DNA from: Paludibacteraceae bacterium
Lineage (GTDB): Bacteria; Bacteroidota; Bacteroidia; Bacteroidales; Paludibacteraceae
Assembly (NCBI GenBank): GCA_017527905.1
Contig: JAFXPK010000053.1
Location: forward strand, 1 to 64,000
Direction: 5' to 3'
DNA length: 64,000 nucleotides
The translations under genes were made by a program, and so were the position numbers. The notes under the pieces were generated by a model. It saw only the letters and a program-made list of their open reading frames with translations, was not told the origin of the DNA and did not search any database. Positions 1 to 24,821 of the stretch are shown here, piece after piece (positions within the stretch are counted from its first letter, which is position 1; the number at the start of each line of letters is the position of its first letter).

Positions 1-3000
1 GAATTCCTTGATATCATCATAAATGAATTCGCCACAATTAGAAGCAAATTTGCCATGCTGTTCACAAGAATGTGCCTGGCACCACCAATCAAGGCATCCA
101 AACGGAACAAAATCTCCCACGACAGGAATAAATCCGAAGGCTATGGTTCCAGCGTCATACACATGACTGACCACATTCCTCGCTGACATTCCATTGCTTA
201 AGGCATCACCCCATGCGTCCACCGCAGAACCGGTTGCGCTATAGACATCATATTCATCCTTAACGAATTTAGATACCTTCTTTACGGTTTTCCAAGTATT
301 CGACGCGCCTCTATAGCCACCCTCAATAAGATCACCAAACGCAGGTATCCATCCGACTATATCCATAAAGCAGCTAAAGCCTCCATCGATTTCCTCTTCG
401 CAATCATCATCATCGTCGTCATCATCTCTATCACAATCAAACTCAACGGTCGATGAGGCACCAGAACCAACATGCCAGCTTCCGCCATGGAAACTAAAGT
501 AACCGCCTTCCAATAAATGTCCGAGGCAATCCCAGAGTTTCACATATGCCAACTTCTTGATATATATTTCACAATCATAGAAGTATATGATATAGAGGAA
601 ACAACCCTCATCTGGGCTATCGACCGAATCGTCTGTGCCCGTCGAACCTCCGCTGTATCCGCCCACATTGGTAGTGACACCCGCATTATTGTCGAACGAA
701 CCGCCGCCAAAAACAGTAGGATAGTAGAACAAATAAGGGTATCCTATGCCCGTGTTATCATTATTCGGATATCCACTACCACTCTGTCCATCTCCACCAG
801 AAGGTGCTTGCTCAGAAAGTCTCTCTATGGTCACTGGCACCACCACAGAATAGTTCGCTGGGAGAGAATCGATATGATCCACATCCGGCGTGAACTTGAA
901 GTACTTCATGGCAGGAGTTTCTATGCTCACATTCTTTGCGGCGATCATTCCATGATTTGTAATCAAAAGATTCGCAACATACTTAGTGCCAGGAGCGAAG
1001 TCCTCTCTTTTTGGCAAGCCATCAGGGAATTCAGCCGTCACAACCGGAGCAGGAACATTCGTCTCGTATTTGGCCTCGATATCCAAATTATACTTATCCT
1101 CAATCTCCGTACGCACCACATTCCATGTATACGTCACAGCCTGATAGGAGACAAAGACGAACTTATTCAGAGTCTGACCGGCCTGTACAGTAATCGTCTC
1201 TTTATGTCCGGAATGCTTATCTGCATTGACTATCAACGAATAATCTCCCTCCGGAATTTTGTCGAAACGAACCTTACCGTCAACATCTGTAACGCCAGAC
1301 GCTACAACAGCGGAATTGAATGCGTTCCTGATCTCAACTGTCGCACCGGCAAGATGGTTCTTTGAAGAAGAGTTGTAATAATATTCGTCCACCACATCAA
1401 CGCTAACGCTTCCCACAAGAGAAGACGTGTATTCCATCGTGTAGCTAATCGATGTGGACTTGCCATTCTCACAGTTGAAACCGATCGTACCGCTGTACGG
1501 AGTATTCAGCTTAGCGCCGTCAAAATAAGAGAGCTTCAATGTCGCTTTCACCGTATCGCCAGGTTTTATGCTCTCGATTACAGTGCCACTAGGCATTGAC
1601 ATACCCTCAAAATTATTTGGCAGAGCCACCGTCACCTTACCAGTCTCTCCTATACCGGTGTTGCAGAGCAAAAGTTCAACATACTTGTTCTTCTGCTTAG
1701 AGACATATGCACTGATAGTCGAAGGCATCACCTTGATTTGTCCATATGGCATCTCGCAATAGAAATACGAAGTGAAGCTAGACATCAGACCTTCGGCAGT
1801 CTCCACACGGAACGTCGACATCAGATACCTATTCCCTTCTGTCACAGACTCACCCGTCACATAGAAGCTGATGGTCTTAGACTCAAGGCCATTCAACACT
1901 GCGATCGAATCGAACTCAACCTTGCAACCATTAGCCAAAGCCAACGTATTGACCTTCACATTGGAAGCCACGACATTGCTTAGGTTCCTCACAGTAATAG
2001 TACCACGGATGGTGTCTCCTTTCTGCACAACCCACTTATCCATGCCCACACTGCAAGAGATTCCAGGAATATCAAACGCATCATATGTGACATCCGAGGA
2101 TTCTCCGCTCAGACATACACCAACGGAATAAACACCGCTCTCGAACACCGTGGAGGCATACACAACCTCGACCTTGCCATCGGCATCAGAAACGACCTCA
2201 TATGTCCTGATTTCAGAATCACCCTTCCTCAACGACACCTTCAGACGTTTGCCTTCCAATGGGTTACCAAATGCGTCAGACACAGATCCCTTAATTGTAA
2301 TCGAATCTCCCGCCTTGTACACCTCTTTCTCGACCACAGCATCGAACACATAGTAGTTCGCGAGAATACCCTTCAAATCCATCACCGCGGTATGGGTGCC
2401 GGACTGGAATGTCAATGTGGCGCTGCTCAATGGCTTATTCGCATCAGTAGGTGTGAAATAGACATCGTAAGAGCCTCCGGTCAACGCATTCCAATTGTCG
2501 GAAAGTTGAACGGAGAAATCCGCCGCATCCGTTCCGGAAATCGTATAGGAGATCGAATCCTGCAATTCGAATCCCTTGACAGACCTGCGGGAGGAAGTGG
2601 TGGCGTTCAGCTTCGTTCCCAACTCGCAAACCGACGAACCGTTGATCTCCAGACTTACAGGAATCTCAATCCTGAAGCTATCGATGTCGGAGTATATCGT
2701 ATCGCATGAGAGGATGGCCGCCACCATGTATTTGTACGTGGTATGGTTATCCAAATCCGACAGGGTTTGGTAATGATTATTCACGTAAGAAGCCATTGGT
2801 GCGGACGGCATGCTCTGAGCGGCCTTCCATACATACAAGTCGTATTTCTCCACCTCAACAGGGAGCGACAACCGCCAATCTATGGTCATGTTTCCATCCT
2901 GCTCATTCACCACATACGATTCACGAGGGCTGGCGAATGTCACCTTCTTTTCGGAGAGATCCGGATATACGTAGTAGTTATAGTTGAATGGAGCGCTAGC

Positions 3001-6000
3001 CACACCCGCCTTGTCGTAAGGAGTAACCATCAAAATCATCGTATCGATATTATCCCCCGACGTACGGAGCTTCATGGACGGAATCGACGTGCCGCTACCT
3101 GATGTGCTCTCATATCCCGTGACATTTCCCGCACGGGCAATCTCCCAAGTAATCGTGGCGATTGTGGAATCGAACGTAGCCTCGAGAGAATAGCTGTTGT
3201 GACATACCACCTGACCGTAATCCAGCATCTGAATATATTCGCCATCAAACTCAAATGCGCCAAGGTCGATCGACTTGCCATAGATTCTCGCGCTACCGTT
3301 CATGTCGGTCTTAGCCGTCATCAAACTGTCAAGACCCTTGTCGACGCAAGAAGATGTCGCATGCAGACGATAGTCGCCACCCGCAGCATTGATGAAACAT
3401 ACATAATTCTGCGATGCGTCAGAACCGCTATTGGCAGTGGCCAACCTGATATTGTTCTCGCCGGACAATTCATCATCGGAAGCGCAATACATCACCTTCA
3501 AATAATCCGATGAAACAACCTGAGGGACAACAGCGTTCCTCACCTTGTTGCCATAGATGATGGAGTTGGCGATGGTAGAACGGGTGTCAGTGGAAGTGTA
3601 CGTGCGATAGATCGGACACCTATCCTTCGTAGTGTTGTGAGCGATCGTGGAATTGATAATGGATGAGTTATAATCATGCGAGATGATGCAATAGCCAACA
3701 TTACGCGCCTCATTACCATACACCAAAGAGTTCTCCATTATAGAATTAGACAAATAGATCACATTGCTATACGTGGAGATATTTTTAGAGATCTCACAAG
3801 ACGAAACGACGGATTGACCTGTAGCCTCAAGCACACCATATGTGGTGCTTTGTCCGCTCAACCGTGAGTTGGACATAACAGAGCCCCTCAAAGAAACAAT
3901 TCTATACCCTCTTCCGTCACTATTGTTGATGAACAAACAACTATCCACGACTCCACCATTGAGTTCGAGCGACTGAACGGAATTTCCGATGAACTTACAG
4001 TTCCTGAATTCTGACTTCTCAGCGAAGACGCTTTCCTCTCCATCTTTCGCATTATTGAAGGAACAACCGATGAATGTGACATTCTTTTTACTCTTCACGT
4101 TCATACCGTTATTGTTCCTCAAGGATCCATTCTGGATAGTGAATCCGTCCACCACGATCGCCAATGAATCAGCGAAATCGTAGTTCTGGATGATACATCT
4201 TCTCTTGTATTGACCATCAATCACCGTAGCATTCTCCGCAACATTCCTCTCGTCCAAAGAGGATTCCGTACCGGCGAAACCACCGTACAGGCTCACGCCA
4301 GCGGCAAGCGAGATGGCGGACGACAATGTCGTATCTCCGTAGTAAGTTCCCGAAGCCACCCAGATCTGATGTTTCTTTCCGGTAGTGGAAGCTAGGGTTA
4401 CCGCCTGGTTGATTTCGCCCAGCGCATCGTCCCAGTTCAAACCAGAGCCCTCAGCCCCAGCCTTCACATAGATGATTGAACCGACAGTTGCCCGTTCGCT
4501 GAATGAGGACTCGATCGCACCCATATCCACCGCATTGCTCTGTTTCCTCTCGTTGCCAAGCATATCGAGCGTATCCGCAACGTCTGTTCCAGCATTGATA
4601 CAGAAAGAAGTTTCGGAGAGCGAGTAGTCACCCTTGGCGGCATCCGTAAACGCAGCGCTAGATTTGCTTCCGTCAACATTGCCTTCCCCATTGGCACCAC
4701 CTTCAATCATCGAATATCTGATCGTGACATTACCATTCGTTCCGACACTCGCTGAATTATCCAAACGTTTATTTCCTACGACAATTGAATTCAGGACTTG
4801 CGTGTTAGAGAAACAATACACAGTCTGATATCTAGACTCATTGTCCGCCACAGTACAATTGAATATCCTTGAATTTTCAAAAGCCGCGATCAAATAATTT
4901 CCGCGAGACTTACACTTAGTGATTTGGGAATTAGAAATCAATGAATTGCCATAATCACACAAGACATAACCCTGTGTTTCGTTTCCGTCGATCAAACATC
5001 TATCAACAACTGAGTTGGACCTCATATGGATGATATAGCCACTACCCTTCGAGTTAACGTTGTTGATGATCTTACAATCGGACATCGTAGTACCAACAAG
5101 ATAGAACACATCGCCACCGTAAGATTCGTTTCCGACGAGCACCGAATTAGTAACACGTGCGGATTCTGCCCGCAAAGCGCCCGAATTATTCGCTATATTG
5201 TTTTTCAAGATACAGTTATTAATCGTCGTGTTGGCGTTAATGTTCACACCAGCGCCATTTGCCGCATATCCGTTTTGGATGGTGAATCCATCCACCACAA
5301 CCGGCTTAGCATCAGGGAATCCGAAGCTTTGGGAGATCACGCATTTTTTATTTTCTCCATCCAAGATGGTTGGATTCGTCGCAACATCACGCGCCTCCAA
5401 TGAGGTCTCGTTGCCGGCAAATCCTCCATAGAGGCTGATTCCACTCGCCAAAGTCACAACAGCAGGAAGCGTCGTGTCGCCATAATAGGTACCAGCCGCC
5501 ACCCAGATCTGATGATTTCTATTGTCCGACGAAGCCGCGAAAATCGCTTGCTGAATATCGCCGAATGCAGCATCCCAACTTGAACCATCTCCATTAGACC
5601 CCAGCTTCACGTACACGGTATCTGTGCACGTGATTGATGGCGCACTTGTATGGGCGGACTCGATCGCACCCATATCCACCGCACCACCTTGCTTCCTGAC
5701 TTTCCCGAGCAAATCAAGCGTGTCGGAGATGTCCACACCAGCATTGATGCAATAAGAATTTGCGGACAAGGAATAGTCCCCGTTTTCAGCATCCGTGAAG
5801 TCTGCATACTTCATCGAACCATTAATATTACCCTCCACGAAGGTACCCTCCAACATATTGTTGACTATCGTGTTCGATCTACTTGTGCCCAACACAGAGG
5901 AATAAAGCTCATTCATCTTGTTGCCGACAACAATTGAATTTTTCAACGTGGAACCTTCCACAAAGATAATATTGGAGCCTTTCGTCTCGTTACGCACAAC

Positions 6001-9000
6001 CGTACAGTTAATCATGTTCGCGTAATCATACAGGTTGATAAGCGGACCATCCGACGTAGAAACGTTGTCGCAGACCAGGGAGTTGAAAAGCGCAGCTGAG
6101 CCATAGTTCAGACTTACGACACGAGAAGATGACGTATTGCCCTTTATCAAACACCTGCTGATTTTTCCGTTGGATGAAATCAAAGTCGTCTTCGATGAGT
6201 TATCAAGAATCTGGCAATCTTCCATCAACGCATTACCACCTCCGACATTCACAATATTTGCGCCAGCATTTGTATTACCCTTAATCAAACAATTCCTCAT
6301 TACGGAAGCGTTACCCAGGCTCACGGAAGCACCACTACCCTCCGTGTTCACAAACTTACAACTGTCGACTCGACTTGATTGGAAATAAGAACCACAATAA
6401 TTATCCTTGGAAGAGGTATTCCCTTCAATCACGCAATTGCTTATCTTAGCATTGGATTCAGAGTAGATCGCGCTGCAAGTATATGTCTTGTTATTCTTCA
6501 CCTCACAACTATCCATCACACATCCTCCAAGCCATATGGTGTAGGATAGCTCACCCACATACGAATTGTCCTCAATCAGCGAGTTCTTAATGACCGCTCT
6601 CTTCGCATAGATGGCAGATCCATGGACTGAAGCCGAATTGTCCTTGATGATACAGTTGTTAACCGTGGCGTTGGCATTGATGTTCATACCACCTCCATAC
6701 ACCGCATATCCGTTCTGGATAGTGAAACCGTCCACCACGACCGCCAAGGAATCGATGAAATCATAATTCTGGGAGATGACACATCTTCCATGCATACCAT
6801 CCAAGACAGTAGGGTTCTTCGCGACGTCTCTTGCGGAGAGTGAAGTTTCAGTGCCCGCGAATCCTCCATATAGGCTGATTCCACCCACAAGGCTCACCAC
6901 AGAAGAAAGCGTCGTGTCACCGTAATATGTACCGGCAGCCACCCAAATCTGGTGTTTCTTTCCGTCTGTCGATGCGGCGGCGATCGCCTGTTGGACATCA
7001 CCGAATGCGGATTGCCAACTTGAGCCATCACCGTTGGAACCCTGCTTCACATACACGACATCACCACACGGCACAACCGTCTGACTCTTCGTATAAGCAG
7101 ATTCTATGGCACCCAAATCCACGGTGCCACCCTGTTTTCTCGCATTCCCCAACAGGTCAAGTGAGTCAGCGACATCCACACCAGCATTGATGCAATTAGA
7201 ATTCTCCGACAACGAATAGTCTCCGTTTTCAGCATCCGTGAATGCGACATACCGCATCATACCATCAACACCATCCACGTAGGAAGAACCAATCATATTG
7301 TTGGTGACCGTATTGGTGCCATTGGCATTCAGAACACCGGAATAATTATTGGCAGCCCTGTTGTCAACAACAATTGAGTTTTTCAACATGGAATTAAGCA
7401 GGGCAACGGCATATCCACATTTCGTCTCGTTATGAACGACCGTACAATTGATCATGGCAGCGCCATCCCGCAAATAGATAGGCTCATATGATGTTGACGA
7501 ACTAACATTGTCGCAAATCAAGCAATTGGAGAACGCCGCACTAGTACCACGAATCTCCGCTATACGACCAGTCACGGTGTTGCCCTTTATCTGACATCTG
7601 TTGAGCTTTCCATAAGAAATCATCAAATCAGAGTTCACCGTATTGTTAATAATCTGGCAATCCTCCACCCTGGCATTGCCACTTCCGATATACATAAAGA
7701 CTGTGTTACAATTCGAGTTGCCATCGAACAAGCAACGCGTCAGCAAGGTTGAGCCCTGCAACTCCACGGCAGCTCCTTCTCCAATGGCATTCACGAACCT
7801 ACAATCGCTGACTGTCGTAGAGACGAAATAGGAACCTCTGTTACCGTTCCTATAGGAACTGTTCCCCTCAATTGTACAACTACTTACCGTGGATTCTTCC
7901 GCATAGATTCCACTATTATAAGTTGCCTTATTATCCTTCAGCACACAATCCTTCATTTCACAGCCAATCAGCCATACAGTGTAGTAAAGATTGTTCGAAT
8001 ACGTATTGCCAATGATTTGGGAATTCTTGATTGTGGATTTTTGCGCATATATGGCCGAAGCTCTATCGGTAGCCTTATTGTTTTTGATGATACAATTGTC
8101 AATCGTAACATTGGAGGAGACGTTCACACCACCGCCATACGAAGCGACTCCGTTTTGGATGGTGAATCCGTCCACCACGACCGCCAAGGAATCTGGGAAT
8201 CCATAATTTTGGTAAATCACACGTTTGGTACTCCTACCATCCAGAATAGTCGGATTCTTCGCGGTATCACGAGCGGACAAAGAAGTTTCATTTCCGGCGA
8301 ATCCACCATATAAGTCGATTCCCCTCTCCAAAGAAAAGGCCGATATCGAGGATGTTGAGTCTCCGAAATATGTGCCGGCCGCCACCCAAATCTGATGTCT
8401 CCTGCCATCGAGAGTGGCCTTTCTTATCGCCTCGTTCACATCTCCGAGTGCGGACGACCAGCTTGAGCCATCGCCCTTCGAGCCTTGCTTCACATACAGA
8501 ATGTCTCCCATGGTTGGAGCCTGAACCATCGCATGCCGAGATTCAATCGCACCCATATCCACCGCACCATTCTGTTTCCTGGCATTACCCGTCAAATCGA
8601 TTGTATCCTGCACATCCTGACCTCTGTTGATGCAATACGACTTCTCGGAAAGTGAATAATCGCCCTTCTCAGGATCCGTGAATGCGGCCAACTCTTTCGT
8701 ACCGGTAATATTCCCCTCACCCCATACACCTCCTTCGATCATCGAATGGCGGAACGTGTTTGATCCGACCGACAAAACATGTCCTCGGAAAGAACCTGTG
8801 TGCTTTGTGCCTACAATGATGGAATTAATTACCGAACTACTATTCATTCTAAGAGAATATTCGGCACCCGTCTCATTATCCGCGAATGTTGTGTTTATCA
8901 TATTGGCGGAATATAAACAAAGAGGGGCAGACGCAGCCTTTACGTTCTTATTCCCATAAATCAACGAATTGGAGAGAACAGACGAAGTACGGATATTCAC

Positions 9001-10032: not shown

Positions 10033-10069
10033 GGTATAACTTTATTATATCTCCAAAGTGTAATTTTTG

Positions 10070-10101
10070 CAAATGTATATCAAAAAATTACATTCATCAA
10101 C
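10070..10101 (-). promoter_or_regulatory. Bacteroidota-type promoter for the left giant gene
   Basis: On the minus strand a GTTG sequence (10101-10098) stands 20 bases before TACATTTG (10077-10070), an exact TAnnTTTG -7 box. The predicted start of transcription near 10063 leaves a leader of about 30 bases before the ATG at 10032. The -33 box is GTTG rather than TTTG. Confidence 0.55.
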
Positions 10102-10313
10102 ACAATTGACCAATGTATAGTATAATTTACCTAAAAATATCAAATATTGTGATTTTATAATAAATTACGGCCAACATATGAGATTTCCGCCACACATCTA
10201 TCACAATACACATTTATAGCCCAACACTTTTTCAATCAAGCAGTTCGCATGCAAGGCAATATCGGATGTCCAGTCTGCAGAACGGTCAACAAACCATTGA
10301 GCGTGAATAATAC

Positions 10314-10346
10314 AAACCCCTTCCCGAAACCATCGAGAAGGGGTTC
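10314..10346 (-). terminator. Hairpin terminator after the right giant gene
   Basis: Read on the minus strand, AACCCCTTC pairs with GAAGGGGTT around a 13-base loop and is followed by a T-rich run (TTTGTATTATT). It lies about 30 bases after the stop at 10378. With the promoter at 10070-10101 it suggests that the two giant genes are separate transcription units. Confidence 0.65.
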
Positions 10347-10377
10347 GCTTTATGTACGGACAAGCATCCGGCTTGCC

Positions 10378-13300: not shown

Positions 13301-16300
13301 CGTCGCTCTTCCGCATCTTTCTCAAGCGCGTCATGCAACTTTTCTGTTCCCCAAGAAAGAGCAGGACCAACTACTGGTATCAGGCCAAGCAAGCCACCTG
13401 CGCAACCCCAAGGATCGACTTTCGAGAGACATGTGTTACAAGGCAAATCCAAGTTGACGGCATGGCTATGGTTCTGGACATTGCCCATCTGATGAGATTC
13501 CCTATTTGTTCCACCATAAATCGGCACATCAAATCCGCCACCGCCATTACCACCTCCGCCAAGAGGAGTCAAATATGGGCAACCCTTTACAGGCTTAGTA
13601 ACGGCTGACTTCTGTCTCAACAAGCCACAGACATAAGAGTATTCCGCATGGACACTTGGACATTCAGATTTTCCGAGCGACTCATTCTCAAGAAGTAAAC
13701 CATAACCATTGTCGATACTATAATCCGCAGCGGAAGGGTACTCGTAAGAAGTGCGGACAATCGTGATTGGCACAAATTCCGTATGATTTGCCGGCAACGA
13801 ATCGATATAGTTGTACGGCACATAGAATCTATAGTATGGCATACTAGGCATACCGAACTTCACATAATGCGCGGCGATCAAACCATGGTTGGTAATCTGA
13901 AGAAGGACAGTCTTCGGCACACCCACTTCAAATCTTTCCACATCAGGGACATCATTAGGAAACGACAATGTCACGACAGGAGCCGGAACGTTAGTCTCAT
14001 ACTCAAAGTCGAGATCGATATCGTACTTGTCTTCTATCTCAACACGCTCCACATTCCATGTATAGGTGATTGCCTGATAAGACAAGAAGACGAACTTGCT
14101 CAATTTGCGACCCGCCTGGATCTCAATCGTCTCCTGATATTCGGAGTGTTTGTTCGCCTTGACGCTCAACAAATAAGTTCCCTCAGGGATACTATCGAAA
14201 TTCACGATACCGGTAGAATCCGTATAACCAGATGCCACCACTACATTGTTGAACTGGTTGCGAACCACAACTTGAGCGTCGCTCAAATGCTTCTTGTCCG
14301 CCGTGTTGTAGAAGTACTCATCCACCACGTCAACCTCCAAGCTACCCTTGGACTCGGAAGAGAACTCGATTCTAAATGGCAGGCTAGTAGACTTACCATT
14401 CGCGCAGTTGACACCGATCGAACCAGTGAACGGCACATTGATAGGTGCCCCATCGTAATACGCAACCTTCAATGAAACCCTTGATGTGTCACCAGACTTG
14501 AGGCTAGGCAAGGTCGTTGACGGCACACTGAACCCAGAGAAATCAGGCATGGCCAACGTAATCTCGCCCGTCTCTCCGAATCCCGCATTCGTCAACTCAA
14601 GGCTGATATACTTAGCCTTCTGTTTAGAGACATACTCGTCGATATTCGCAGGAGAAACCTTGATTTGTCCGTAAGGTTGCTCACAGAAGAAATACGTTGA
14701 GAAGTCGCAAGTCGTTTCCTCATCGCTAGAGACTCTGAACACACTTGGGAGATAGAACTTATCCTCCGTCAATTTTGTTCCTGTCGCCCTATACGGAATC
14801 CTTGCGGATTCATTTCCCTTAAGGGTCTCCAACGTGTCGAATTGGACGGACAAGCCGTCAGCCAACTCACGGGTCTCGACCACAAGGTTGTGAAGAGGGA
14901 CAGAACTTCTATTGGTTATCGTGATAGAACCATCGATGGTATCACCCTTTTGAATCGTCCACTTCGTAGTACCGCCCGTATAAGCCATGCCTGGGATTTC
15001 GAATTTAGCGAGAGCCGCATCATCCGACTTAGAACCGATATAGACCTTCACCGTGTAGACACCACATTCCGTCGGGGAAGTGGCGAACCTGACAGCAGCC
15101 TTACCCGTGGAATCCGTGACATCCGTGGTTGAGTGAGTGAATCCTGTATTAGAGTTGGCCTCAATCGTAAGCGATTTACCCTGCATCGGCGAGCCATAAG
15201 CATCCGTCAAAACACCGACGATATCCACAGTGTCTCCCGCATGGTAGACATTCTGTCCGACTATAGCGTCGTACACATAGTAGTTGGACAACGTACCTGC
15301 CAGATAAAGCGTGATTTTATACTTGTCTGATTTACCGGACCTGATCGTAATCTCCGCATCGCTCTGTTGCTTCTTCACATCCGTTGGCGTGTAGAAGATC
15401 CTCAGATAACCACCATTCAGTTTATCCCAGCCCTTCTCAACCTGAGCGGAGAAATCAGAAGCATCCCTTCCGGAGATCTCATAGGTGATCGAATCCGTCA
15501 ACTCAAATCCCTTCACATAGCGCGTCAGGGATGAGGTCTCGTTCAACTTCGAGCCGAACACACAATTAATGTTTCCACTCAAAGTAAGGCTTACAGGAAT
15601 ATCAATCCTGAAGCTGTCGATTTCAGAGCAGATGGTGTCACAAGCGATCACCGCCTTCACCATGTACTTGTACGTGGTATGGTTGGCCAGACCCGTCATG
15701 TTTTTGTAATGCTCCTTCACAAATGAACCCACCGGAGTAGCAGGCATCTTTTGGGTAGACTTCCACACATACAGATCATAGCTGTCCACCTCGACAGGAA
15801 GCGAGAGCCTATTCCACTCTATCGACATGCTGTTGTTTTGCTCATTCACCACATAAGCGACCTGAGGCTGAGAGAATGTCACCTTCTTCTTAGAGAAGTC
15901 TGGATAGACGAAGTATTTGTAGTCGAACGGATTACCCGCCACACCATTCTTGTCATAAGGAGTAACCTTCACGACCAAAGTGTCCACCGTGCTCTTAGAC
16001 GTGTGCAACTGCATAGCCGGGATCGTCTTGCCGCTGCCTGAAGCGACCTCAAAGCCTGAGACTCCACCCGCATTGGAGATTTTCCAATCAATCTTGGAGA
16101 TTGTGGAGTCGAATGAAGCCTCAAGAGAGTATCTGTTGTGGCAAACCGCCTGGCTGTAATCCAACATCTGAACATATTCACCATCAAACTCGATAGCGCC
16201 CAAATCAATCGCCTTGCCGTAGATCCTCGATCCGCCGATGGCATCATGCGCGGCGGTCATCACACTGTCAAGACCCTTATCGACGCAAGATGATGTCGCA

Positions 16301-19300
16301 TGCAAGCGGTAGTCGCCGCCAGCCGCATTGATGAAGCATACATAATTCTGAGAAGCGTCAGATCCGCTGTTCGAGGAAGCCAATCTAATGTTGTTTTCTC
16401 CCGTCAACTCGCCATCAGATGCGCAGTACATCACCTTTATGTAGTCAGACGCAACCACCTGCGGGCATACAACATCCTTCACCTTGTTGCCATAGATGAT
16501 AGAGTTGGCGATCGTGGTATATCTGCCCGAATATGAGTTTGAGAAATAGATCGCACTCACAGACTTGGTCGTGTTATGGGCAATCGTGGCATTGGTGATG
16601 AAGGAAGTGGAATTAGCAGAAATCACACCATAGTTAGAGCCGCCAGTCACCACATTTCCACACACCAAAGAGTTCTCCAAAGTAGAGGTACCCAAATAGA
16701 CTATGCTTCGGTACGGCGTCACATTGTTCATGAACTTACAAGATGTAATGAATGACCTATCCTCAGCCTCAACGACACCATAATTAGTGACATGGTTAGA
16801 TATCTCCGAGTTAGACATCCTTGAGCGCTCAAGGTAGACTATTCTCTTACCGTTTTGATTAGACGAATTGTCTTTGAACGCACAGCTATCCACGATTCCA
16901 TCATGAACTTCAAGCGCTTGGATAACATTATCCTTAAACTCACAGTTCCTGATCACAGACTTTTCCGCGAACACAACATCATCACCCTCTCTAGCGTTTC
17001 TGAAGACACAATTGTTGAACGTAGTGTTTTTCTTCGTCTTCGCATTCACACCGTTGTTGTTCGCAAGGCCTCCGTTCTGGATCGTGAATCCGTCCACCAC
17101 GATCGCCAACGAATCAGCGAAATCGTAGTTTTGTATAATACATCTTCTCTTGTATCTACCGTCAATCACAGTGAGATTCTTTACAGGGTCTCTCTCTTCC
17201 AAAGAAGACTCCCCTCCAGCGAAACCTCCGTACAGGCTCACACCAGCCGCGAGCGAAATCGCGGACGTCAACGAGGTGTCACCGTAATAGGTGCCCTTAG
17301 CCACCCAAATCTGGTGATTCAATCCCGTCATGGAGGCAAGAGACACAGCCTGGTTGATTTCACCAAGCGCATCATCCCAGCTTGATCCGGAGCCTGTGGC
17401 CCCAGCCTTCACGTAGATGATTGTGCCGACAGAGACTCTCTCTGTGAATGGAGACTCTATCGCACCCATATCCACGGCCTCGCTCTGTTTCCTTTCGTTG
17501 CCAAGCATATCCGTTGTGTAATCAACATCCGTTCCCGCATTGATGCAAAGAGATCTTTCCGAAAGTGAATAATCACCCTTCGACGCATTCACAAAGGCAG
17601 CACTCGACTTGCTACCGTCTATATTGCCATCACCAGCTGCACCGCCCTCGATCATTGAATGTTTGATTGTGGCACCATTCACGTAGACAGTCTCTTTATT
17701 GTTTGAACGCTTGTTACCAACAACAATCGAGTTCAGAATCTGAGTATTGGCATAGCAGTAGATTGACTGATCGTTAGACTGATTATCAGCCACAGTACAG
17801 TTAACCATCTCGGAACTGCCAGAAAGAGAGAGCACACTAGCACTGCGTGAAACACAATTTGTAATCTGAGAATTAGAAATAGACGAATTGCTGTAGAGAT
17901 ACACCACATTGCTATTCGTCTCATTTCCATCTATCAAACATCTTTCCACAACAGAGCCACCATCCAATCGAACCAGGATGCAGTAATAAGAAACCGTGCA
18001 GATGTTGTTGAGGACCTTACAATCGGACATTGTGGAACCATTCGTCAAACTGATCATACACTCACGAACCGTTCCATTTCCTTCAAACAACGAGTTGGTG
18101 ATCCTTGAGGACTCGGCATACAAACCGCTAACGACATATCCCTTATTATCCTTCACGATACAATTGTCGACCTGACTTCTAATCAAATACAAGGCTCCAC
18201 GCTTGTTCGAATTGCTAGCATAATCTCCATTATCACAAATCACAGAGTTCGTGACAGAAGCATCGGCAGCATATATCGCGGTTCCATTCTCTACTGCGTG
18301 ACAATTTCTCACGATACAATTGTTCAGAACAGTGCTCTTCCTCAGATAAGCACCAGCGCCCTCTGCCGCAGCTCCGTTTTGGATGGTGAATCCATCCACC
18401 ACAACCACCATAGAGGTATCAAAATTATAGTTCTGCGTGATGACACGTCTCTTGCCCATACCGTCCAAAATGGTCGGATTCTTTGCGGTGTCCCTAGCGG
18501 ACAATGACGTCTCCGTTCCCGCGAAACCTCCGTATAGGCTAACTCCGCTTGCCAGGTTCACCACCGTGGAAAGCGTCGTGTCGCCGTAATAAGTACCGGC
18601 GGCCACCCATATCTGGTGTTTCTTTCCGTCAGCCGCGGCGGCGAAGATCGCTTGTTGCACATCACCGAATGGGGAGCTCCAACTAGAACCATTTCCTTGA
18701 GCACCCGCCTTCACATAGACGATCTCACCAATCGTGATCACAGGCGCTGTCGTGTGGGCCGACTCGATCGCACCCAAATCCACCGCATCACTCTGCTTTC
18801 TAGCGTTTCCAAACAAATCCAACGTGTCCGCGACATCCGCTCCCGCATTGATGCAATAGGAGTTTGCGGACAAGGAATAGTCTCCATTTTCCGGATCCGT
18901 GAAGGCGGCATACTGCATGGAGCCATCAATATTACCTTCCAAGAAGGTAGCCTCCAACATGTTATCAGAGATCGTGTTCGTTCCACTCTGAGACAAGATT
19001 CCACTATAGTTGGCGTCCATCTTATTGCCGACCACGATCGAGTTCTTCAGAGAGGAATTCGTTATGCTAACAATACTCTTGGCCTTTGTGCTGTTGCGGG
19101 CAACCGTACAATTGGTCATGGATGCGCCATTGTATAGATTAACAAGCGTGGAAGTCGACGTACATATGTTGTCACAAATCAAACTGTTCGAAATGGTGGC
19201 TCCTGCGTAAGTGAAATCCAACACATTGCCATAGGTCGTGTTCCCCCTCAATATACACCTGTTCCATTTTCCTCTGGAAGAGACTAGAACAGTATTGGTC

Positions 19301-22300
19301 GTGTTATTCACAAATCGGCAATCCTCCACCAAAACAGTTTCGCTCCAATCATAAATAATGTTTGTGTTTATATCCTGGTTCTTTTCGAACAGACATTCAC
19401 GCACGATCGAGTTACCCTGAAGGTACAACGATGCACCTGAGCCAACCGTGTTCACAAACTTACAACCGATAAGGCTTGAGGCATTAATGTAAGATCCCCT
19501 TGAACTATTGTCCTGAGAGCTATTTCCCTCAAACACACAATTCGTCACAATCGAACCGGATTCAGCATACATCGCACAAGAGGAATACGTTCTATTATTC
19601 TTCAGCACGCAGTTTTCCATCTGACAATTGGCAAGGCGAACCGTGTAATTTAGGCGATCCAAATATGTGTTGCCGAAGATCTGCGTATTCTTAATGGTCG
19701 CATTCGTTGCATAGATGGCAGAAGCGTTGCTTATCGCCTTATTCTCCTTCACGATACAATTATTGATCGTCGTGTTGGCATTGATGTACAAACCACCACC
19801 ATTTGTCGCCAAACCGTTTTGGATGGTGAATCCGTCCACCACAACCGCCTTAGTGCTATCGAAATCATAATTTTGCGTGATGACACGTCTCTTGCCCATA
19901 CCGTCCAAGATGGTCGGGTACTTTGCGGTATCCCTAGCGGCCAATGATGTCTCCGTGCCTGCGAAACCTCCGTATAGGCTGATTCCGCTTGCCAGGTTCA
20001 CCACCGTGGAAAGCGTCGTGTCGCCGTAGTAAGTGCCGGCGGCCACCCATATCTGGTGAGTCTTCCCGTCGGCCGCCGCAGCGAAGATCGCCTGTTGCAC
20101 ATCGCCGAACGCGGAACTCCAGCTTGAACCGTTTCCTTTAGCGCCCGACTTCACATAGATGATGTCGCCAGTCGTGATCACAGGCGCTGTCGTATGGGCC
20201 GATTCGATCGCACCCATATCCACCGCACCGCCCTGCTTTCTCGCTTTTCCTAACAAATCAAGCGAATCCGCAACGTCCAATCCTCCATTGATGCAATAAG
20301 AGTTCGCCGACAATGAATAATCATCATTCTCCGCATCCGTGAATGCCGCATACTGCATCGAACCATCTATATTACCCTCCACGAAGGTGCCTTCCAACAT
20401 GTTATTAGAGATAGTGTTTGTTCCATCCAAACTCAAGACTCCGCTATAGTTGGCATCCGTCAGGTTACCGGCCACGATTGAGTTTTTCATCGTGGAATTG
20501 TGCAAGCCGATAACTTTCGCACTCTTCATACTGTTGCCGACAACGGTACAATTGATCATGGAAGCGCCACTGAACAAATAAACGGGTTCATTGGAGGACG
20601 AGGTGCATACGTTATCGCATATTAAGCTATTTGAAATTCTCGCCTCGGAATAATTGAAACTAGCCAAATGGGCAGAGGTTGTGTTCCCCTTTACCAAGCA
20701 CCTGTTATATTTTCCACGGGAGCCCAGCACATTGACACTTAACGTATTGTTCAGGAATTGGCAATCCTCCACACGGACATCCCCATTCCAATCGCTAAGC
20801 ATGGTTACGTTGACATCCGTATTCCCCTCGAACAAGCATCCTCTCATCACTGCCGCATTCTGCATCTCCACGCTAGACCCACAACCTACCGTGTTCACGA
20901 ACTTACAGTTGATGACCTCCGACGAGGAGAAGGCCGAGCCCGTATAGTCATTATTTCTGCTCTTATTACCGGAAATTTCGCAATTAGACACTATTGCCTT
21001 ATCCTTCGCATAGATTGCGCATTGGTTATATCCCTCGTTATTCTTCACCGCACAACTATCCATCAAACCTCCGGTAAGATAGACGGTGTAGTGCATATAA
21101 GGAGCATACGAGTTGCCAATGATCTGCGTGTTTTTGATGGTCGCCCCTGTCGCATTGATGGCCGATCCATAACCAGAAACCTTATTCTCCTTGACGATAC
21201 AGTTATTGATCGTCGTGTTAGCGTTGATGTTCAAGCCACCGCCATTCACCGCAGAACCGTTTCGTATGGTGAAACCATCCACCACGACCGCTTTAGACTT
21301 ATCGAAAGCATAATTCTGTGTGATGACACGCCTTTTCTCCATACCATCCAAGATAGTAGGGTTCTTTGCAGTGTCCCTAGCGGACAATGACGTCTCCGTT
21401 CCCGCGAAACCTCCGTATAGGCTGATTCCGCTCGCCAAGTTCACCACCGTGGAAAGCGTCGTGTCACCGTAGTAAGTGCCGGCGGCCACCCATATCTGGT
21501 GTTTCTTCCCGTCAGCCGCCGCAGCGAAGATCGCTTGTTGCACATCGCCGAATGCGGAGCTCCAACTAGAGCCGTTCCCTTTAGCGCCAGACTTCACGTA
21601 GACGATGTCGCCACATGTGAATGATGGCGCCTTCGTGTGGGCCGACTCGATCGCACCCATATCCACAGCACCACCCTGTTTCCTTGTCTTACCGAACACA
21701 TCCAACGAATCCGCGAGATCCGCTCCCGCATTAATGCAATAGGAGTTCGACGACAAGGAATAATCTCCATTTTCCGCATCCGTGAATGCCGCATACTGCA
21801 TTGAGCCGTCAATATTACCCTCCACGAAGGAACCCTCCAACATGTTATTAGAGATAGTGTTCGTTCCCAGCAGATTGAAGACTCCGCTATAGCCAGAGTT
21901 CTTCTTATTGTCGACCACGATCGAATTCCTCATAGAGGAAGTATTCATGTACACTATTTTCGTGCAATTAGTGCTATTGCGGGCAACGGTGCAATTGTTC
22001 ATGGAAGCGCCGTCGTACAAATAAATAGGCTCGTCGGACGAGGAAGAAATATTATCGCTGATCAAACAGTTCGAAATCGTCGCCGCCGAATATGAGAAAT
22101 CGATAATGCGGGAGGATATCGTATTCCCCTGAATTACACATCGATTGTATTTTCCTCGGGAACTCAACAAAACAGATGTTGTCGTATTGTTAAGGATTCG
22201 GCAATCCTCCACTCGAGCATCCCCACTCCAATCATAGATCAAAGTTCCATTGAGGCTATTCTTCTCGAACAGACAATCGCGCACCACCGCTTTGCCCTGA

Positions 22301-24558
22301 AGCTCCAAGCTTGCCCCACCATTATTCGAGTTCACGAACTTACAGCCGATGGCGCTTGACGCATCGAAAACACCGCCCCTTGACGAGCTTTCCTGTGCGC
22401 TATTCCCTTCAAACACACAATTGCTCACAATCGAACCTTTTTGGGCATATACCAAACAGTGAGAATACGTTTTGTTGCTCTTCACCTCGCAATTATCCAT
22501 CTCACAACCGACTAACTGAAGCGTATAATTGAGGCGATCCTTGTCCCTATACGAGTTGCCGATAATCAACGAATTTTTGATGGTCGAACCAGTCGCATTG
22601 ATGGCAGAAGCACTGTTTGATGCCTTGTTGTCTTTGACGATACAGTTATTGATTGTCGTGTTGCCACAGATACCCAAACCACCACCATTCGTCGCAAAAC
22701 CGTTTTGAATAGTAAATCCATCCACCACGACTGCCTTAGACTTGTCGAAATCAAAATTCTGAGAAATAACACGTCTTTTACCCATACCATCCAAAATAGT
22801 AGGGTTCCTTGCGGTATCCCTAGCGGACAAAGACGTCTCCGTACCTGCGAAACCTCCGTATAAGCTGATTCCGCTCGCCAAGCTCACCACCGTGGAAAGC
22901 GTCGTGTCGCCGTAATAAGTGCCGGCGGCCACCCAAATCTGGTGAGTCTTTCCGTCGGCCGCTGCTGCGAAAATCGCCTGTTGCACATCGCCGAACGCGG
23001 AGCTCCAGCTTGAACCGTTTCCTTTAGCGCCCGACTTCACATAGACGATGTCGCCACACGTGAAGGATGGAGCCTTTGTATGGGCCGATTCGATCGCACC
23101 CATATCCACTGCGCCGCCCTGCTTCCTCGTTTTTCCTAACACATCCAACAAGTCCGAGACATCCGCTCCCGCATTGATGCAATAAGAGTTTGCGGACAAA
23201 GAGAAGTCGGCATTACCAGCATTCGTAAACGCGGCATACTGCATCGAGCCGTCCATATTACCCCCCACAAAGGTGGCCTCCAACATGTTATTAGAGACAG
23301 TGTTTGTCCCATCCAGCGTCAAGACTCCGCCATAGATGCCATCCGTCTTGTTGCCGACCACTATAGAGTTTTTCATCACGGAATTTCTCACGCGCACGAT
23401 CTTCCCGTTCGTTGTCTTATTACGGACAATAGTACAGTTGATCATGGAAGCGCCACCGTTCAGATAGACAGGTTCATCGTTTGATGAACAGATATTGTCG
23501 TATATCAAACAATTCGAGACCGACGCAGTCGATCTATATAAATCGAAGATACGGGAAGCCAACTTGTTCCCTTTTATCACACACCTATTGTATTTCCCTT
23601 GGGTGCTCAGCAATATGTAGTTCGACTCATTGTTAAGGATCTGGCAATCCTCTACCCGGGCATCCCCACTCCAATCAGCAATAAGGTTATTGTTGGGAAT
23701 CTTGTTCCCCTCGAACAAGCAATTGCTCAACACCGCATTTCCCTGGAGTTCCACGCTCCCCCCATCACTATTCGTATTGATGAACTTACAATTGCGAACC
23801 GTTGAGGAGATGAAACATGATCCTCTATAGTTATAATAAGACTTATTAGCTTCGACCACGCAATCAGATATCTCGGAACCATTCTCCGCATAAATAGCGG
23901 CATAGAAATACCCCTCATTGTTCTTCACCAAGCAACCATCCATTTTACTGCCGTTAAGATAGACTGCATAATGATTGGAAGTTAGGTATTTATTGCCAAT
24001 GATCTGGGTATTCGTGACCCTAGCGCCTTTCGCATATATGGCCGAGCCATAGCCGGAAGAGGTATTGCCCTTGATGATACAGTTGTTGATTGTCGTGTTA
24101 GCGTTGATGTTCACACCACCACCATTTTCCGCCGTTCCGTTTTGGATAGTGAATCCATCCACCACAACCGCAGAAGTCGAATCGAACGCACTCTCCTGAA
24201 AGACGACCCGATTTTTTTCGGAACCGTCCAACACGGTAGGGTTCGCCGCAGTGTCTCTCGCCGCCAACGAAGTCTCGTTACCAGCGAAACCGCCATAAAG
24301 GCAGACATTAGGTTTTAGCGTAACGACGGGCGATGACCCGTTTTTGTAAACGCCCTTAGCCACCCAAACGTCAGCGCCTCTCTTTGCCGCGGAATCCACA
24401 GCCTGCTGAACATTTCCAAATGCATTACTCCAGGAACTACCATTTCCGTTAGCCCCTGATTTCACATAAAAAACACCTTTCGCCGACACAGAAAGCGAGA
24501 CGAAAGATAATGCCAAAACCAACAACAATGATTTTGACTTCACACAGAAATAACTCAT
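10378..24558 (-). CDS. Giant T9SS-secreted multi-module beta-helix protein (about 4726 aa)
   Basis: I place the start at 24558 although the frame is open to an ATG at 24651: from 24558 there are 12 residues before the LVLALSFV signal core, exactly as in the paralogue at 10032. Six right-handed beta-helix modules begin near residues 26, 502, 983, 1463, 1943 and 2376. They are followed by an Fn3-like region (about 2900), a bacterial Ig-like domain (about 3095), a carboxypeptidase-regulatory-like domain (about 3403), a Cys-rich segment with acidic runs and hydrophobic IPVVG stretches (about 3703-3903), a long region of beta-rich repeats and a final T9SS type A sorting domain (about 4653-4726, with GVYIV and a closing KVIVK). 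Likely exported through the outer membrane and anchored or released at the surface. The ligand is unknown; adhesin or glycan binding is inference from domain type only. Confidence 0.93.
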   Translation of the reverse strand: MSYFCVKSKSLLLVLALSFVSLSVSAKGVFYVKSGANGNGSSWSNAFGNVQQAVDSAAKRGADVWVAKGVYKNGSSPVVTLKPNVCLYGGFAGNETSLAARDTAANPTVLDGSEKNRVVFQESAFDSTSAVVVDGFTIQNGTAENGGGVNINANTTINNCIIKGNTSSGYGSAIYAKGARVTNTQIIGNKYLTSNHYAVYLNGSKMDGCLVKNNEGYFYAAIYAENGSEISDCVVEANKSYYNYRGSCFISSTVRNCKFINTNSDGGSVELQGNAVLSNCLFEGNKIPNNNLIADWSGDARVEDCQILNNESNYILLSTQGKYNRCVIKGNKLASRIFDLYRSTASVSNCLIYDNICSSNDEPVYLNGGASMINCTIVRNKTTNGKIVRVRNSVMKNSIVVGNKTDGIYGGVLTLDGTNTVSNNMLEATFVGGNMDGSMQYAAFTNAGNADFSLSANSYCINAGADVSDLLDVLGKTRKQGGAVDMGAIESAHTKAPSFTCGDIVYVKSGAKGNGSSWSSAFGDVQQAIFAAAADGKTHQIWVAAGTYYGDTTLSTVVSLASGISLYGGFAGTETSLSARDTARNPTILDGMGKRRVISQNFDFDKSKAVVVDGFTIQNGFATNGGGLGICGNTTINNCIVKDNKASNSASAINATGSTIKNSLIIGNSYRDKDRLNYTLQLVGCEMDNCEVKSNKTYSHCLVYAQKGSIVSNCVFEGNSAQESSSRGGVFDASSAIGCKFVNSNNGGASLELQGKAVVRDCLFEKNSLNGTLIYDWSGDARVEDCRILNNTTTSVLLSSRGKYNRCVIQGNTISSRIIDFSYSAATISNCLISDNISSSSDEPIYLYDGASMNNCTVARNSTNCTKIVYMNTSSMRNSIVVDNKKNSGYSGVFNLLGTNTISNNMLEGSFVEGNIDGSMQYAAFTDAENGDYSLSSNSYCINAGADLADSLDVFGKTRKQGGAVDMGAIESAHTKAPSFTCGDIVYVKSGAKGNGSSWSSAFGDVQQAIFAAAADGKKHQIWVAAGTYYGDTTLSTVVNLASGISLYGGFAGTETSLSARDTAKNPTILDGMEKRRVITQNYAFDKSKAVVVDGFTIRNGSAVNGGGLNINANTTINNCIVKENKVSGYGSAINATGATIKNTQIIGNSYAPYMHYTVYLTGGLMDSCAVKNNEGYNQCAIYAKDKAIVSNCEISGNKSRNNDYTGSAFSSSEVINCKFVNTVGCGSSVEMQNAAVMRGCLFEGNTDVNVTMLSDWNGDVRVEDCQFLNNTLSVNVLGSRGKYNRCLVKGNTTSAHLASFNYSEARISNSLICDNVCTSSSNEPVYLFSGASMINCTVVGNSMKSAKVIGLHNSTMKNSIVAGNLTDANYSGVLSLDGTNTISNNMLEGTFVEGNIDGSMQYAAFTDAENDDYSLSANSYCINGGLDVADSLDLLGKARKQGGAVDMGAIESAHTTAPVITTGDIIYVKSGAKGNGSSWSSAFGDVQQAIFAAAADGKTHQIWVAAGTYYGDTTLSTVVNLASGISLYGGFAGTETSLAARDTAKYPTILDGMGKRRVITQNYDFDSTKAVVVDGFTIQNGLATNGGGLYINANTTINNCIVKENKAISNASAIYATNATIKNTQIFGNTYLDRLNYTVRLANCQMENCVLKNNRTYSSCAMYAESGSIVTNCVFEGNSSQDNSSRGSYINASSLIGCKFVNTVGSGASLYLQGNSIVRECLFEKNQDINTNIIYDWSETVLVEDCRFVNNTTNTVLVSSRGKWNRCILRGNTTYGNVLDFTYAGATISNSLICDNICTSTSTLVNLYNGASMTNCTVARNSTKAKSIVSITNSSLKNSIVVGNKMDANYSGILSQSGTNTISDNMLEATFLEGNIDGSMQYAAFTDPENGDYSLSANSYCINAGADVADTLDLFGNARKQSDAVDLGAIESAHTTAPVITIGEIVYVKAGAQGNGSSWSSPFGDVQQAIFAAAADGKKHQIWVAAGTYYGDTTLSTVVNLASGVSLYGGFAGTETSLSARDTAKNPTILDGMGKRRVITQNYNFDTSMVVVVDGFTIQNGAAAEGAGAYLRKSTVLNNCIVRNCHAVENGTAIYAADASVTNSVICDNGDYASNSNKRGALYLIRSQVDNCIVKDNKGYVVSGLYAESSRITNSLFEGNGTVRECMISLTNGSTMSDCKVLNNICTVSYYCILVRLDGGSVVERCLIDGNETNSNVVYLYSNSSISNSQITNCVSRSASVLSLSGSSEMVNCTVADNQSNDQSIYCYANTQILNSIVVGNKRSNNKETVYVNGATIKHSMIEGGAAGDGNIDGSKSSAAFVNASKGDYSLSERSLCINAGTDVDYTTDMLGNERKQSEAVDMGAIESPFTERVSVGTIIYVKAGATGSGSSWDDALGEINQAVSLASMTGLNHQIWVAKGTYYGDTSLTSAISLAAGVSLYGGFAGGESSLEERDPVKNLTVIDGRYKRRCIIQNYDFADSLAIVVDGFTIQNGGLANNNGVNAKTKKNTTFNNCVFRNAREGDDVVFAEKSVIRNCEFKDNVIQALEVHDGIVDSCAFKDNSSNQNGKRIVYLERSRMSNSEISNHVTNYGVVEAEDRSFITSCKFMNNVTPYRSIVYLGTSTLENSLVCGNVVTGGSNYGVISANSTSFITNATIAHNTTKSVSAIYFSNSYSGRYTTIANSIIYGNKVKDVVCPQVVASDYIKVMYCASDGELTGENNIRLASSNSGSDASQNYVCFINAAGGDYRLHATSSCVDKGLDSVMTAAHDAIGGSRIYGKAIDLGAIEFDGEYVQMLDYSQAVCHNRYSLEASFDSTISKIDWKISNAGGVSGFEVASGSGKTIPAMQLHTSKSTVDTLVVKVTPYDKNGVAGNPFDYKYFVYPDFSKKKVTFSQPQVAYVVNEQNNSMSIEWNRLSLPVEVDSYDLYVWKSTQKMPATPVGSFVKEHYKNMTGLANHTTYKYMVKAVIACDTICSEIDSFRIDIPVSLTLSGNINCVFGSKLNETSSLTRYVKGFELTDSITYEISGRDASDFSAQVEKGWDKLNGGYLRIFYTPTDVKKQQSDAEITIRSGKSDKYKITLYLAGTLSNYYVYDAIVGQNVYHAGDTVDIVGVLTDAYGSPMQGKSLTIEANSNTGFTHSTTDVTDSTGKAAVRFATSPTECGVYTVKVYIGSKSDDAALAKFEIPGMAYTGGTTKWTIQKGDTIDGSITITNRSSVPLHNLVVETRELADGLSVQFDTLETLKGNESARIPYRATGTKLTEDKFYLPSVFRVSSDEETTCDFSTYFFCEQPYGQIKVSPANIDEYVSKQKAKYISLELTNAGFGETGEITLAMPDFSGFSVPSTTLPSLKSGDTSRVSLKVAYYDGAPINVPFTGSIGVNCANGKSTSLPFRIEFSSESKGSLEVDVVDEYFYNTADKKHLSDAQVVVRNQFNNVVVASGYTDSTGIVNFDSIPEGTYLLSVKANKHSEYQETIEIQAGRKLSKFVFLSYQAITYTWNVERVEIEDKYDIDLDFEYETNVPAPVVTLSFPNDVPDVERFEVGVPKTVLLQITNHGLIAAHYVKFGMPSMPYYRFYVPYNYIDSLPANHTEFVPITIVRTSYEYPSAADYSIDNGYGLLLENESLGKSECPSVHAEYSYVCGLLRQKSAVTKPVKGCPYLTPLGGGGNGGGGFDVPIYGGTNRESHQMGNVQNHSHAVNLDLPCNTCLSKVDPWGCAGGLLGLIPVVGPALSWGTEKLHDALEKDAEERRKRLSCEVEEEEEDHAHWFETAESPFNDYELNNATPEDLVERMDRQDGYFFNGYIDYDDEDDEDLPFLSASISSLQTEYKAVRLLVDAYSGELDPYEAVDFIWDQGKEYLDDAKDKIPVVKYVPWECIDMLCQLNSCDAGRYAENCGRYVYDRIMGNNEEDADTRKAVTTAGDTVVIENGVMVDVLYSDGDSLSAQNKPKEPAMRKAQFEMQNSIYQTSDARSLAAQDAVELAGFLSYKTNILRELAGSEDRLSVSGIVDYFDYTIKDYSHGRKISLDSIKKLPTLDLPTTEMLEIAQRWNETVEANENGVYSPNEQYPNIIDKSVISTYMDSIVNFYTYMRLRGHRTLDHMLLSINKQVHKPTQKNICASVKLHISQTLTMTREAFDGTLTVNNGNETGAMEGFKVELEVRDEEGNLANDLFQINTEKVTGASAIDGTGEIAPKSEATAVFRFIPERGAAPTAPVNYSFGGRIIYVDPSSGDTVSADLYPVTLTVNPSPDLQIDYFMQRNILADDALTLDRVEPSVPAALGVRIDNQGYGDAKNVKLETAQPEIVDNEKGLLIDFSIIGSSLNGKDCDLGSENIDFGNIEAHSAKTGVWWMTSSLLGHFTKYEASVVHANSFGNPELSLVKGIAIHELIKTVDAYGVKEDSIVDFLVNDKEDDDDTPDAIYYSNGGMDPVYGTQWTRLDKERVSPVDTVVRLTVTPSNAGWNYAQMMDPGNNCYEIQKVVRVKDSVEIPLDNVWTTFVTLPDGMEPVYVNRLHFLDHMTTLGENDYDIYYSVRKNLLRVTSITGVPTTVEAVTSPVDSVIVTFSHKIQKESFDYRDIELYCQAGDNLSDSTITVAQRDDYTYVVNISSKTMATGFFKIEVNVNNVYDKDGYPGEFGKNATWSQYIEGYGPIVTSVEETETDKIVIYTYGNNIYVKSEMAGVLDIYDLLSRLVVKNARYGEGVTMVATLPKGVYIVNGTKVIVK
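16180..24480 (-). repeat. Array of six beta-helix modules inside the right giant gene
   Basis: Modules start near 24480, 23052, 21609, 20170, 18729 and 17430. Spacings are about 1428, 1443, 1439, 1441 and 1299 bp. The DNA of modules 2 to 5 is nearly identical over long stretches: for example the segments at about 18541-18600 and 19981-20040 lie exactly 1440 bp apart and differ at only a few bases. Such similarity among neighbours points to recent tandem duplication or gene conversion. It will also be a hazard for short-read assembly. Confidence 0.9.
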
Positions 24559-24821
24559 TGCTTTGTCCATATATTCATTATTACACACACATACAAACTT
24601 GCATAAAATATAGTACAAAAATAGTGCCAAAGCCTTTCGTTTTTCGCCCATGGGCCACCAAAAATCAAAAAAACTGCAAAAATGAACTTATTTTTTCCAT
24701 TTTGTGACATTCTTATCACAAAGTCTGGGTCAAACAAACATTCGCATAGCCACCCCTAACCAATCCACCCTTAAAACCACCTTTTCTAGGGATTGCGGGG
24801 ATGGCCAAAACCGCAGAAATT

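What the first reader, a model, noticed from the sequence alone, without database searches (positions are those of the whole stretch)
1..24558. Tandem giant paralogues with unequal numbers of beta-helix modules
Two neighbouring genes of more than 3300 and about 4726 codons share the same order of domains, but one has five and the other six modules. The last modules of each (from 4480 and 17430) are most alike (RRCIIQNYDFADSLAIVVDG in both), so the ancestor already had several modules before gene duplication. Afterwards modules were gained or lost on one side. This is a candidate system for varying the length of a surface fibre by recombination.
Basis: partly seen in the sequence, partly recalled or inferred. 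Interest (0 to 1): 0.75.

Follow-up and report, generated by a model that had tools for sequence, protein, structure and literature searches.

The report
Recombining giant beta-helix surface proteins
Two neighbouring giant genes from a herbivore-gut Bacteroidales bacterium encode exported proteins built from 5 and 6 large beta-helix modules, and comparison with relatives shows that the inner modules and one tail segment are repeatedly reshuffled by recombination, within genes and between species, while the end modules stay fixed.

Summary
Gene B (10378-24651, minus strand) has six modules. Gene A (1-10032, minus) has five; its C-terminus is cut off by the contig start, and its last codons are on another contig. 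The last modules are the most alike A/B pair, and module trees reject 'each gene's modules form one clade' (p-AU < 1e-43). The duplicated ancestor therefore already had several modules.

Complete relatives carry 2, 4, 5, 6 or 7 modules, but the B-type gene has six in all four species where it is fully assembled. The modules here (72-77% DNA identity among B2-B4) are too diverged for rapid length switching, and strains could not be compared.

What the data show instead is directed shuffling. Penultimate and terminal modules are fixed classes; middle modules resemble others in their own gene. The first ~115 codons of internal modules are homogenised within a gene even between module classes, so they look like a recombination handle. 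The tail holds a hypervariable segment, exchanged almost intact between two species whose neighbouring genes are strongly diverged. The proteins are probably T9SS-exported. Modules are right-handed beta-helices without conserved charged residues in the body, so I favour a binding or stalk role over catalysis. Function is inferred.

The parts
10378..24651 (-). Gene B: 4757-codon giant protein (signal peptide, six beta-helix modules, beta-sandwich stalk, hypervariable segment, C-terminal T9SS-like domain)
   Evidence: ORF; Pfam Beta_helix 6.3e-37, PKD_5, fn3, Big_1/MG2, CarboxypepD_reg
1..10032 (-). Gene A: more than 3344 codons, five modules, C-terminus cut by the contig start; end found at G000:C26:5-139
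23089..24477 (-). B module 1: first-type N-cap joined to a middle-type body
21646..23052 (-). B module 2 (middle class)
20203..21609 (-). B module 3 (middle class)
   Evidence: AF2 model
18763..20166 (-). B module 4 (middle class)
   Evidence: AF2 model
17455..18726 (-). B module 5 (penultimate class); its first 115 codons match B4 at 88% but its body is of the penultimate class
16189..17424 (-). B module 6 (terminal class)
8542..9951 (-). A module 1 (first class, F body)
7102..8505 (-). A module 2 (middle class)
5659..7062 (-). A module 3 (middle class)
4510..5622 (-). A module 4 (penultimate class, shortened to 371 aa)
3250..4479 (-). A module 5 (terminal class)
18382..18726 (-). N-cap recombination handle of B5 (codons 1-115); equivalent stretches in B4 19822-20166, B3 21265-21609, B2 22708-23052
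   Evidence: N-caps of penultimate modules are nearest to own-gene middle modules in 5 of 6 genes although bodies group by class
12169..13401 (-). Hypervariable tail segment of B (tail residues about 930-1340), Cys-containing, predicted mostly alpha-helical at low confidence
11329..11991 (-). Conserved 3' block of the tail (residues about 1400-1620; 83-100% aa identity over its core, residues 1450-1600, across A- and B-type genes)
10381..10605 (-). C-terminal T9SS type A-like sorting domain
   Evidence: TIGR04183 21.3 bits, cut-off 23; SprA in the genome

Best explanation
Genes A and B belong to a family of giant proteins of rumen/herbivore-gut Bacteroidales (several relatives labelled Paludibacteraceae), probably exported by the type IX secretion system. 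Each has an N-terminal array of right-handed beta-helix modules (~470 aa plus linker), a beta-sandwich stalk, a hypervariable segment and a C-terminal sorting domain. SHOWN by comparison: one first-type N-cap, one penultimate and one terminal module are held in fixed positions in nearly all genes; the middle modules evolve in concert within a gene; the N-cap of internal modules is homogenised within the gene even across classes; bodies change independently of N-caps (first modules carry the same N-cap with either of two body types); module number differs between genes (2-7); one gene (G034) is a chimera of a B-like array and an A-type tail centre at an orthologous locus; tail and array tracts are shared between species far more closely than neighbouring genes. 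INFERRED: homologous recombination and gene conversion through the conserved N-caps gives in-frame gain, loss and replacement of module bodies, and recombination through conserved tail flanks swaps the hypervariable segment. The products most likely act as long adhesive or contact fibres whose binding surfaces, more than length, are what varies.
For: Class structure of 84 modules with 100/96-100/100 support. AU tests: A modules one clade p=3e-44, B modules one clade p=3e-51, position-orthology of middle modules p=3e-4 and 4e-22. N-caps of penultimate modules are nearer to own-gene middle modules (0.80-0.95) than to other genes' penultimate modules (0.74-0.79) in five of six genes (tie in G000A, 0.716 v 0.719), while bodies are nearer to other genes' penultimate modules in six of six; 'penultimate modules one clade' p=2e-27 for N-caps but 100% supported for bodies. 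First N-caps 73-84% alike across genes but 57-61% to the second module of the same gene; bodies of two types. G061 v G062: tail windows at residues ~900-1340 pS 0.04-0.07 (98-99% nt) against neighbours 0.49-0.73; sister pair G062/G065 64-73% nt in the middle of the same segment. G010B v G015B: about 3400 codons mostly pS 0.00-0.08 against most neighbours 0.3-0.86. G034 chimera at a locus syntenic with G061, G062, G064B, G065. Beta-helix: (most body blocks pLDDT 80-97). SprA present.
Against: No expression, localisation or binding data. The T9SS signal is just below its curated cut-off (21.3 v 23 bits). B-type module number is constant at six in four species. The named relatives are metagenome assemblies, in which near-identical modules could be collapsed; several arrays are broken at contig ends. 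The tail hypervariable segment gave a poor model (mean pLDDT 52), so its role is unknown. Two neighbours of the G010/G015 array also have low pS (0.02, 0.05), so that exchange may not be limited to this gene.
Confidence: 0.68

Rival explanations
1. One reading: a length-tuning ('Periscope'-like) surface fibre whose module number is switched by recombination.
For: Module number 2-7 between complete genes; at the dnaK locus the last tandem gene has five modules here (A) and two in Tb.RUG.361 (R), whose tails group together (100%) and whose downstream neighbours are 95% identical; G034 modules 3 and 4 are 97.5% identical with a 498-nt exact run.
Against: B-type gene constant at six in four species; modules in this genome at most 77% identical; no strain-level data.
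Confidence: 0.2
2. The modules are polysaccharide-active enzymes arrayed in tandem, like AlgE epimerases or PL6 lyases.
For: Best fold matches are PL6 alginate lyases, chondroitinase B and AlgE A-modules.
Against: Whole-model TM-scores are 0.12-0.24 by query length; no lyase or epimerase family matched; no DPHE motif in 89 modules, and no charged or His residue is at least 90% conserved in the helix body (residues 121-410) over 47 modules; conserved body positions are Asn, Cys, Gly, Thr, Ser, Ile.
Confidence: 0.1
3. Apparent concerted evolution is only shared codon usage and purifying selection on the N-cap.
For: The N-cap is the most conserved part in all modules (45 of its 120 columns at least 90% conserved).
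Against: Constraint alone does not make N-caps nearer to a different class in the same gene than to the same class elsewhere; array GC is nearly equal in the congeners G000, G006, G010 (0.472-0.477), and the bodies of the same modules show the opposite pattern.
Confidence: 0.05
4. Assembly artefact: collapsed repeats and chimeric metagenome contigs create the differences in number and the mosaic tails.
For: Named relatives are metagenome assemblies; in six of nine contig-broken genes the break lies in the middle modules; one 132-nt overlap between the two broken ends.
Against: A and B here are on one contig with modules at most 77% identical, too diverged to collapse; G034 has syntenic flanks on both sides; the G061/G062 and G010/G015 pairs are separately named assemblies.
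Confidence: 0.05

Closest known systems
Periscope Proteins (PMC8201768: SasG, Rib, Sgo0707 and others)
   Same: Surface-type proteins with tandem folded domains; number differs between relatives; recombination between repeats is the likely source
   Different: Here modules are ~480-aa beta-helices, mostly 50-77% identical; ends are fixed classes; B-type number is constant in four species; no N-terminal ligand-binding domain was identified; no strain data
AlgE mannuronan C-5-epimerases of Azotobacter (PMC12269086, PMC7385640)
   Same: Paralogous secreted proteins built from beta-helix modules; AlgE1 has six modules, two of them catalytic (that the family is clustered with unequal module counts is from my own knowledge)
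   Different: No catalytic motif, different secretion route, very different size; no membership
Choice-of-anchor Q domain proteins (NF041518) with right-handed beta-helix (PF13229)
   Same: Each module is a beta-helix ending in this domain, 5 and 6 times over
   Different: Tandem array of 2-7 modules in one giant protein; positional classes and N-cap homogenisation
Fibrillar adhesins of Bacteroidetes (PMC8286594)
   Same: Long multidomain proteins with stalk-type domains (PKD-like, SpaA-like, Big_1) in the tail
   Different: No catalogued adhesive domain found; adhesion untested

Membership tests
Choice-of-anchor Q / beta-helix protein | Match above curated cut-off | tested here: met
   NF041518 119.3 and 113.1 bits v 25; PF13229 127.1 and 112.9 bits v 25.9
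T9SS type A cargo | C-terminal sorting domain TIGR04183 above cut-off | tested here: inconclusive
   21.3 bits v 23, E 2e-4
T9SS type A cargo | Host genome encodes the T9SS translocon | tested here: met
   SprA TIGR04189 2384 bits at G000:C12
Periscope Protein | Tandem array of highly similar folded domains | tested here: not met
   B2-B4 72-77% nt, other within-gene pairs 48-68%; met only by single pairs in relatives (G034 modules 3/4, 97.5%)
Periscope Protein | Repeat number varies between strains | not testable with these tools
   One genome per species held; between species constant for B-type, variable for A-type
Periscope Protein | N-terminal ligand-binding domain projected by the array | tested here: not met
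   Array starts at residue ~30-70 after the signal peptide; no other N-terminal domain found
AlgE epimerase / PL6 lyase | Family-specific match and catalytic motif | tested here: not met
   No family match; no DPHE; no conserved charged residue in helix body
Fibrillar adhesin | Known adhesive domain plus stalk domains | tested here: inconclusive
   Stalk-type domains found, no known adhesive domain reported by Pfam

The most novel reading that the evidence does not exclude
A two-level diversity generator in giant surface proteins. Conserved N-caps serve as in-gene recombination handles that swap or multiply beta-helix bodies between fixed end modules without breaking frame, and conserved tail flanks let a hypervariable segment pass between species, so that fibre binding surfaces are assembled combinatorially.
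Probability: 0.3. Interest if true: 0.7.

Novelty: new variant of a known kind. Interest (0 to 1): 0.52.

Why it matters
It gives a clear natural case in which large folded domains (about 1.4 kb each) evolve in concert, with the recombining part (N-cap) and the diversifying part (helix body) separable by sequence, and with the same protein exchanging a hypervariable segment between species of gut bacteria. That makes testable how giant surface proteins in uncultured Bacteroidales keep frame, fold and end modules while changing their exposed surface. Several such genes are broken at contig ends in the assemblies used here, so this variation is probably under-counted.

Tried and rejected
(1) Gene-precise mobility of the whole gene: DNA similarity between G010 and G015, and G006 and G009P, stops at the gene ends, but protein-level synteny shows G010, G015 and G006 share neighbours with rearrangements, so this idea was dropped. 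(2) Contig breaks as proof of long identical repeats: six of seven broken gene halves in one set break in middle modules, but with the other broken genes it is six of nine, against about 0.4 expected by length; weak, used only as a caveat. (3) Structure of the hypervariable segment: mean pLDDT 52, not searched further. (4) PDB sequence search with the module profile: nothing. (5) Pfam on the hypervariable part: only sub-threshold chance matches. (6) Literature for choice-of-anchor Q in Bacteroides: no paper found.

Full report
OBSERVATION. Gene B (10378-24651, minus) and gene A (1-10032, minus) are as described, with six and five modules. The window begins at the first base of contig C24, so A lacks its C-terminus; 45 residues 80% identical to the end of B lie at the start of contig C26, followed by a gene that also follows the last tandem paralogue in Tb.RUG.361 (95% identity). 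The domain order of the tails (PKD-like, fn3, Big_1/MG2, CarboxypepD_reg) is shared. The last modules are the closest A x B pair.

MODULE TREE. I collected relatives from genomes of the same genus and family and from GTDB species genomes. Named close relatives are metagenome-derived Bacteroidales, several labelled Paludibacteraceae. An 84-module tree gives four classes: terminal (100/100), penultimate (100/96), first (100/100) and middle (100/99). Each fully assembled gene has one terminal and, except the two-module gene R, one penultimate module. Holding A's or B's modules together as a clade is rejected with p-AU 3e-44 and 3e-51; holding second or third modules of four genes together by position is rejected with p-AU 3e-4 and 4e-22. 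So the ends are ancient and positional, and the middle modules are gene-specific.

MODULE NUMBER. Complete arrays have 2 (R of Tb.RUG.361), 4 (L071, Tb.RUG.234), 5 (A), 6 (B; RUI231; UBA1181; RGIG10174; SIG116) and 7 (Q of Tb.RUG.361). By tail sequence B, RUI231, UBA1181 and RGIG10174 are one B-type group, all with six; the A-type genes vary from 2 to 7. At the dnaK-linked locus the number of tandem paralogues is also unequal: one in RUI231 and UBA1181, two here, at least two in RGIG10174, and three on one contig in Tb.RUG.361.

RECOMBINATION IN THE ARRAY. Pairs of modules among B2-B4 are 88-94% identical over the first ~270 nt and fall to 50-80% in the body. For penultimate modules, whose bodies belong to an old separate class, the first 115 codons are nearer to a middle module of the same gene than to any penultimate module elsewhere in five of six genes, while the bodies behave oppositely in six of six. 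N-cap and body trees disagree: penultimate modules as one clade is rejected for N-caps (p-AU 2e-27) and is 100% supported for bodies; penultimate plus own middle modules is rejected for bodies in all five genes tested. The N-cap of the first module is exempt: it forms its own clade across genes, with either a first-type or a middle-type body behind it. The simplest reading is recombination between N-caps one module apart, which keeps frame and deletes, adds or replaces bodies. In G034 modules 3 and 4 are 97.5% identical with a 498-nt exact run, so such an event there is recent. In the window's own genome identities are lower, so the last events are old.

RECOMBINATION IN THE TAIL. Residues about 930-1340 of the tail are hypervariable between flanks that are highly conserved. 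RGIG10174 and UBA1181 are 99-100% identical over most of the array and stalk, then fall mostly to 58-84% nt here. RUG12804 (G061) and UBA3743 (G062) are 96-100% identical here although neighbouring genes have pS 0.49-0.73, and UBA3743's close relative UBA3844 (G065) differs exactly here. SIG116 (G034) sits at the same locus as RUG12804, UBA3743, UBA3844 and Tb.RUG.234 (nearest neighbours shared on both sides); its terminal module and first ~240 tail residues match theirs, but residues ~300-1400 are A-type. These are between-species exchanges or allele replacements.

STRUCTURE AND FUNCTION. AlphaFold2 of B3-B4 gives two right-handed beta-helices with a well-predicted body and a low-confidence stretch of about 70 residues that ends each module and holds the choice-of-anchor Q region. 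Fold matches are beta-helix proteins: PL6 lyases, chondroitinase B, AlgE A-modules, phage tailspikes. No charged residue is conserved in the helix body over 47 modules, only ladder-type residues. SprA is encoded and the C-terminus resembles a T9SS sorting domain just under the cut-off. I infer an exported fibre or stalk with binding surfaces; this is not shown.

COMPARISON. Length variation of tandem-domain surface proteins is known as the Periscope concept (PMC8201768), which rests on highly similar repeats and strain-level number changes; the first feature is not met here and the second could not be tested. AlgE epimerases offer the nearest precedent for paralogues with several beta-helix modules, but membership fails. 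I therefore call this a new variant of a known kind.

CAVEATS. One genome per species; relatives are assemblies from metagenomes; several arrays are broken at contig ends; identities refer to what was assembled.

Noticed in passing
window 44653-48762 (-): A 1369-aa protein with PKD-like domain and T9SS type B C-terminal domain (CHU_C / TIGR04131): another exported large protein in the same window.
   Followed up: partly
G000:C14:34144-44043 (-) and G000:C47:69690-79496 (+) (L061, L062): Two more giant ORFs (3300 and 3269 aa) in the same genome with a choice-of-anchor Q match but no Pfam family.
   Followed up: partly
window 25540-28596 (-): 1018-aa protein directly upstream of B without any Pfam or NCBIfam match and without a counterpart in the neighbourhoods of the relatives compared.
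   Followed up: partly
L055 626-6655 and L057 10255-15939: The hinge before the hypervariable segment holds long low-complexity runs in some A-type tails: (GS)n in G009Q, repeated DPTGG/NPTGG in G034; absent in B.
   Followed up: no
C-terminal matches listed (e.g. L028-L036): The 60-70-aa C-terminal sorting domain is shared with many otherwise unrelated large ORFs in the genus and family.
   Followed up: no
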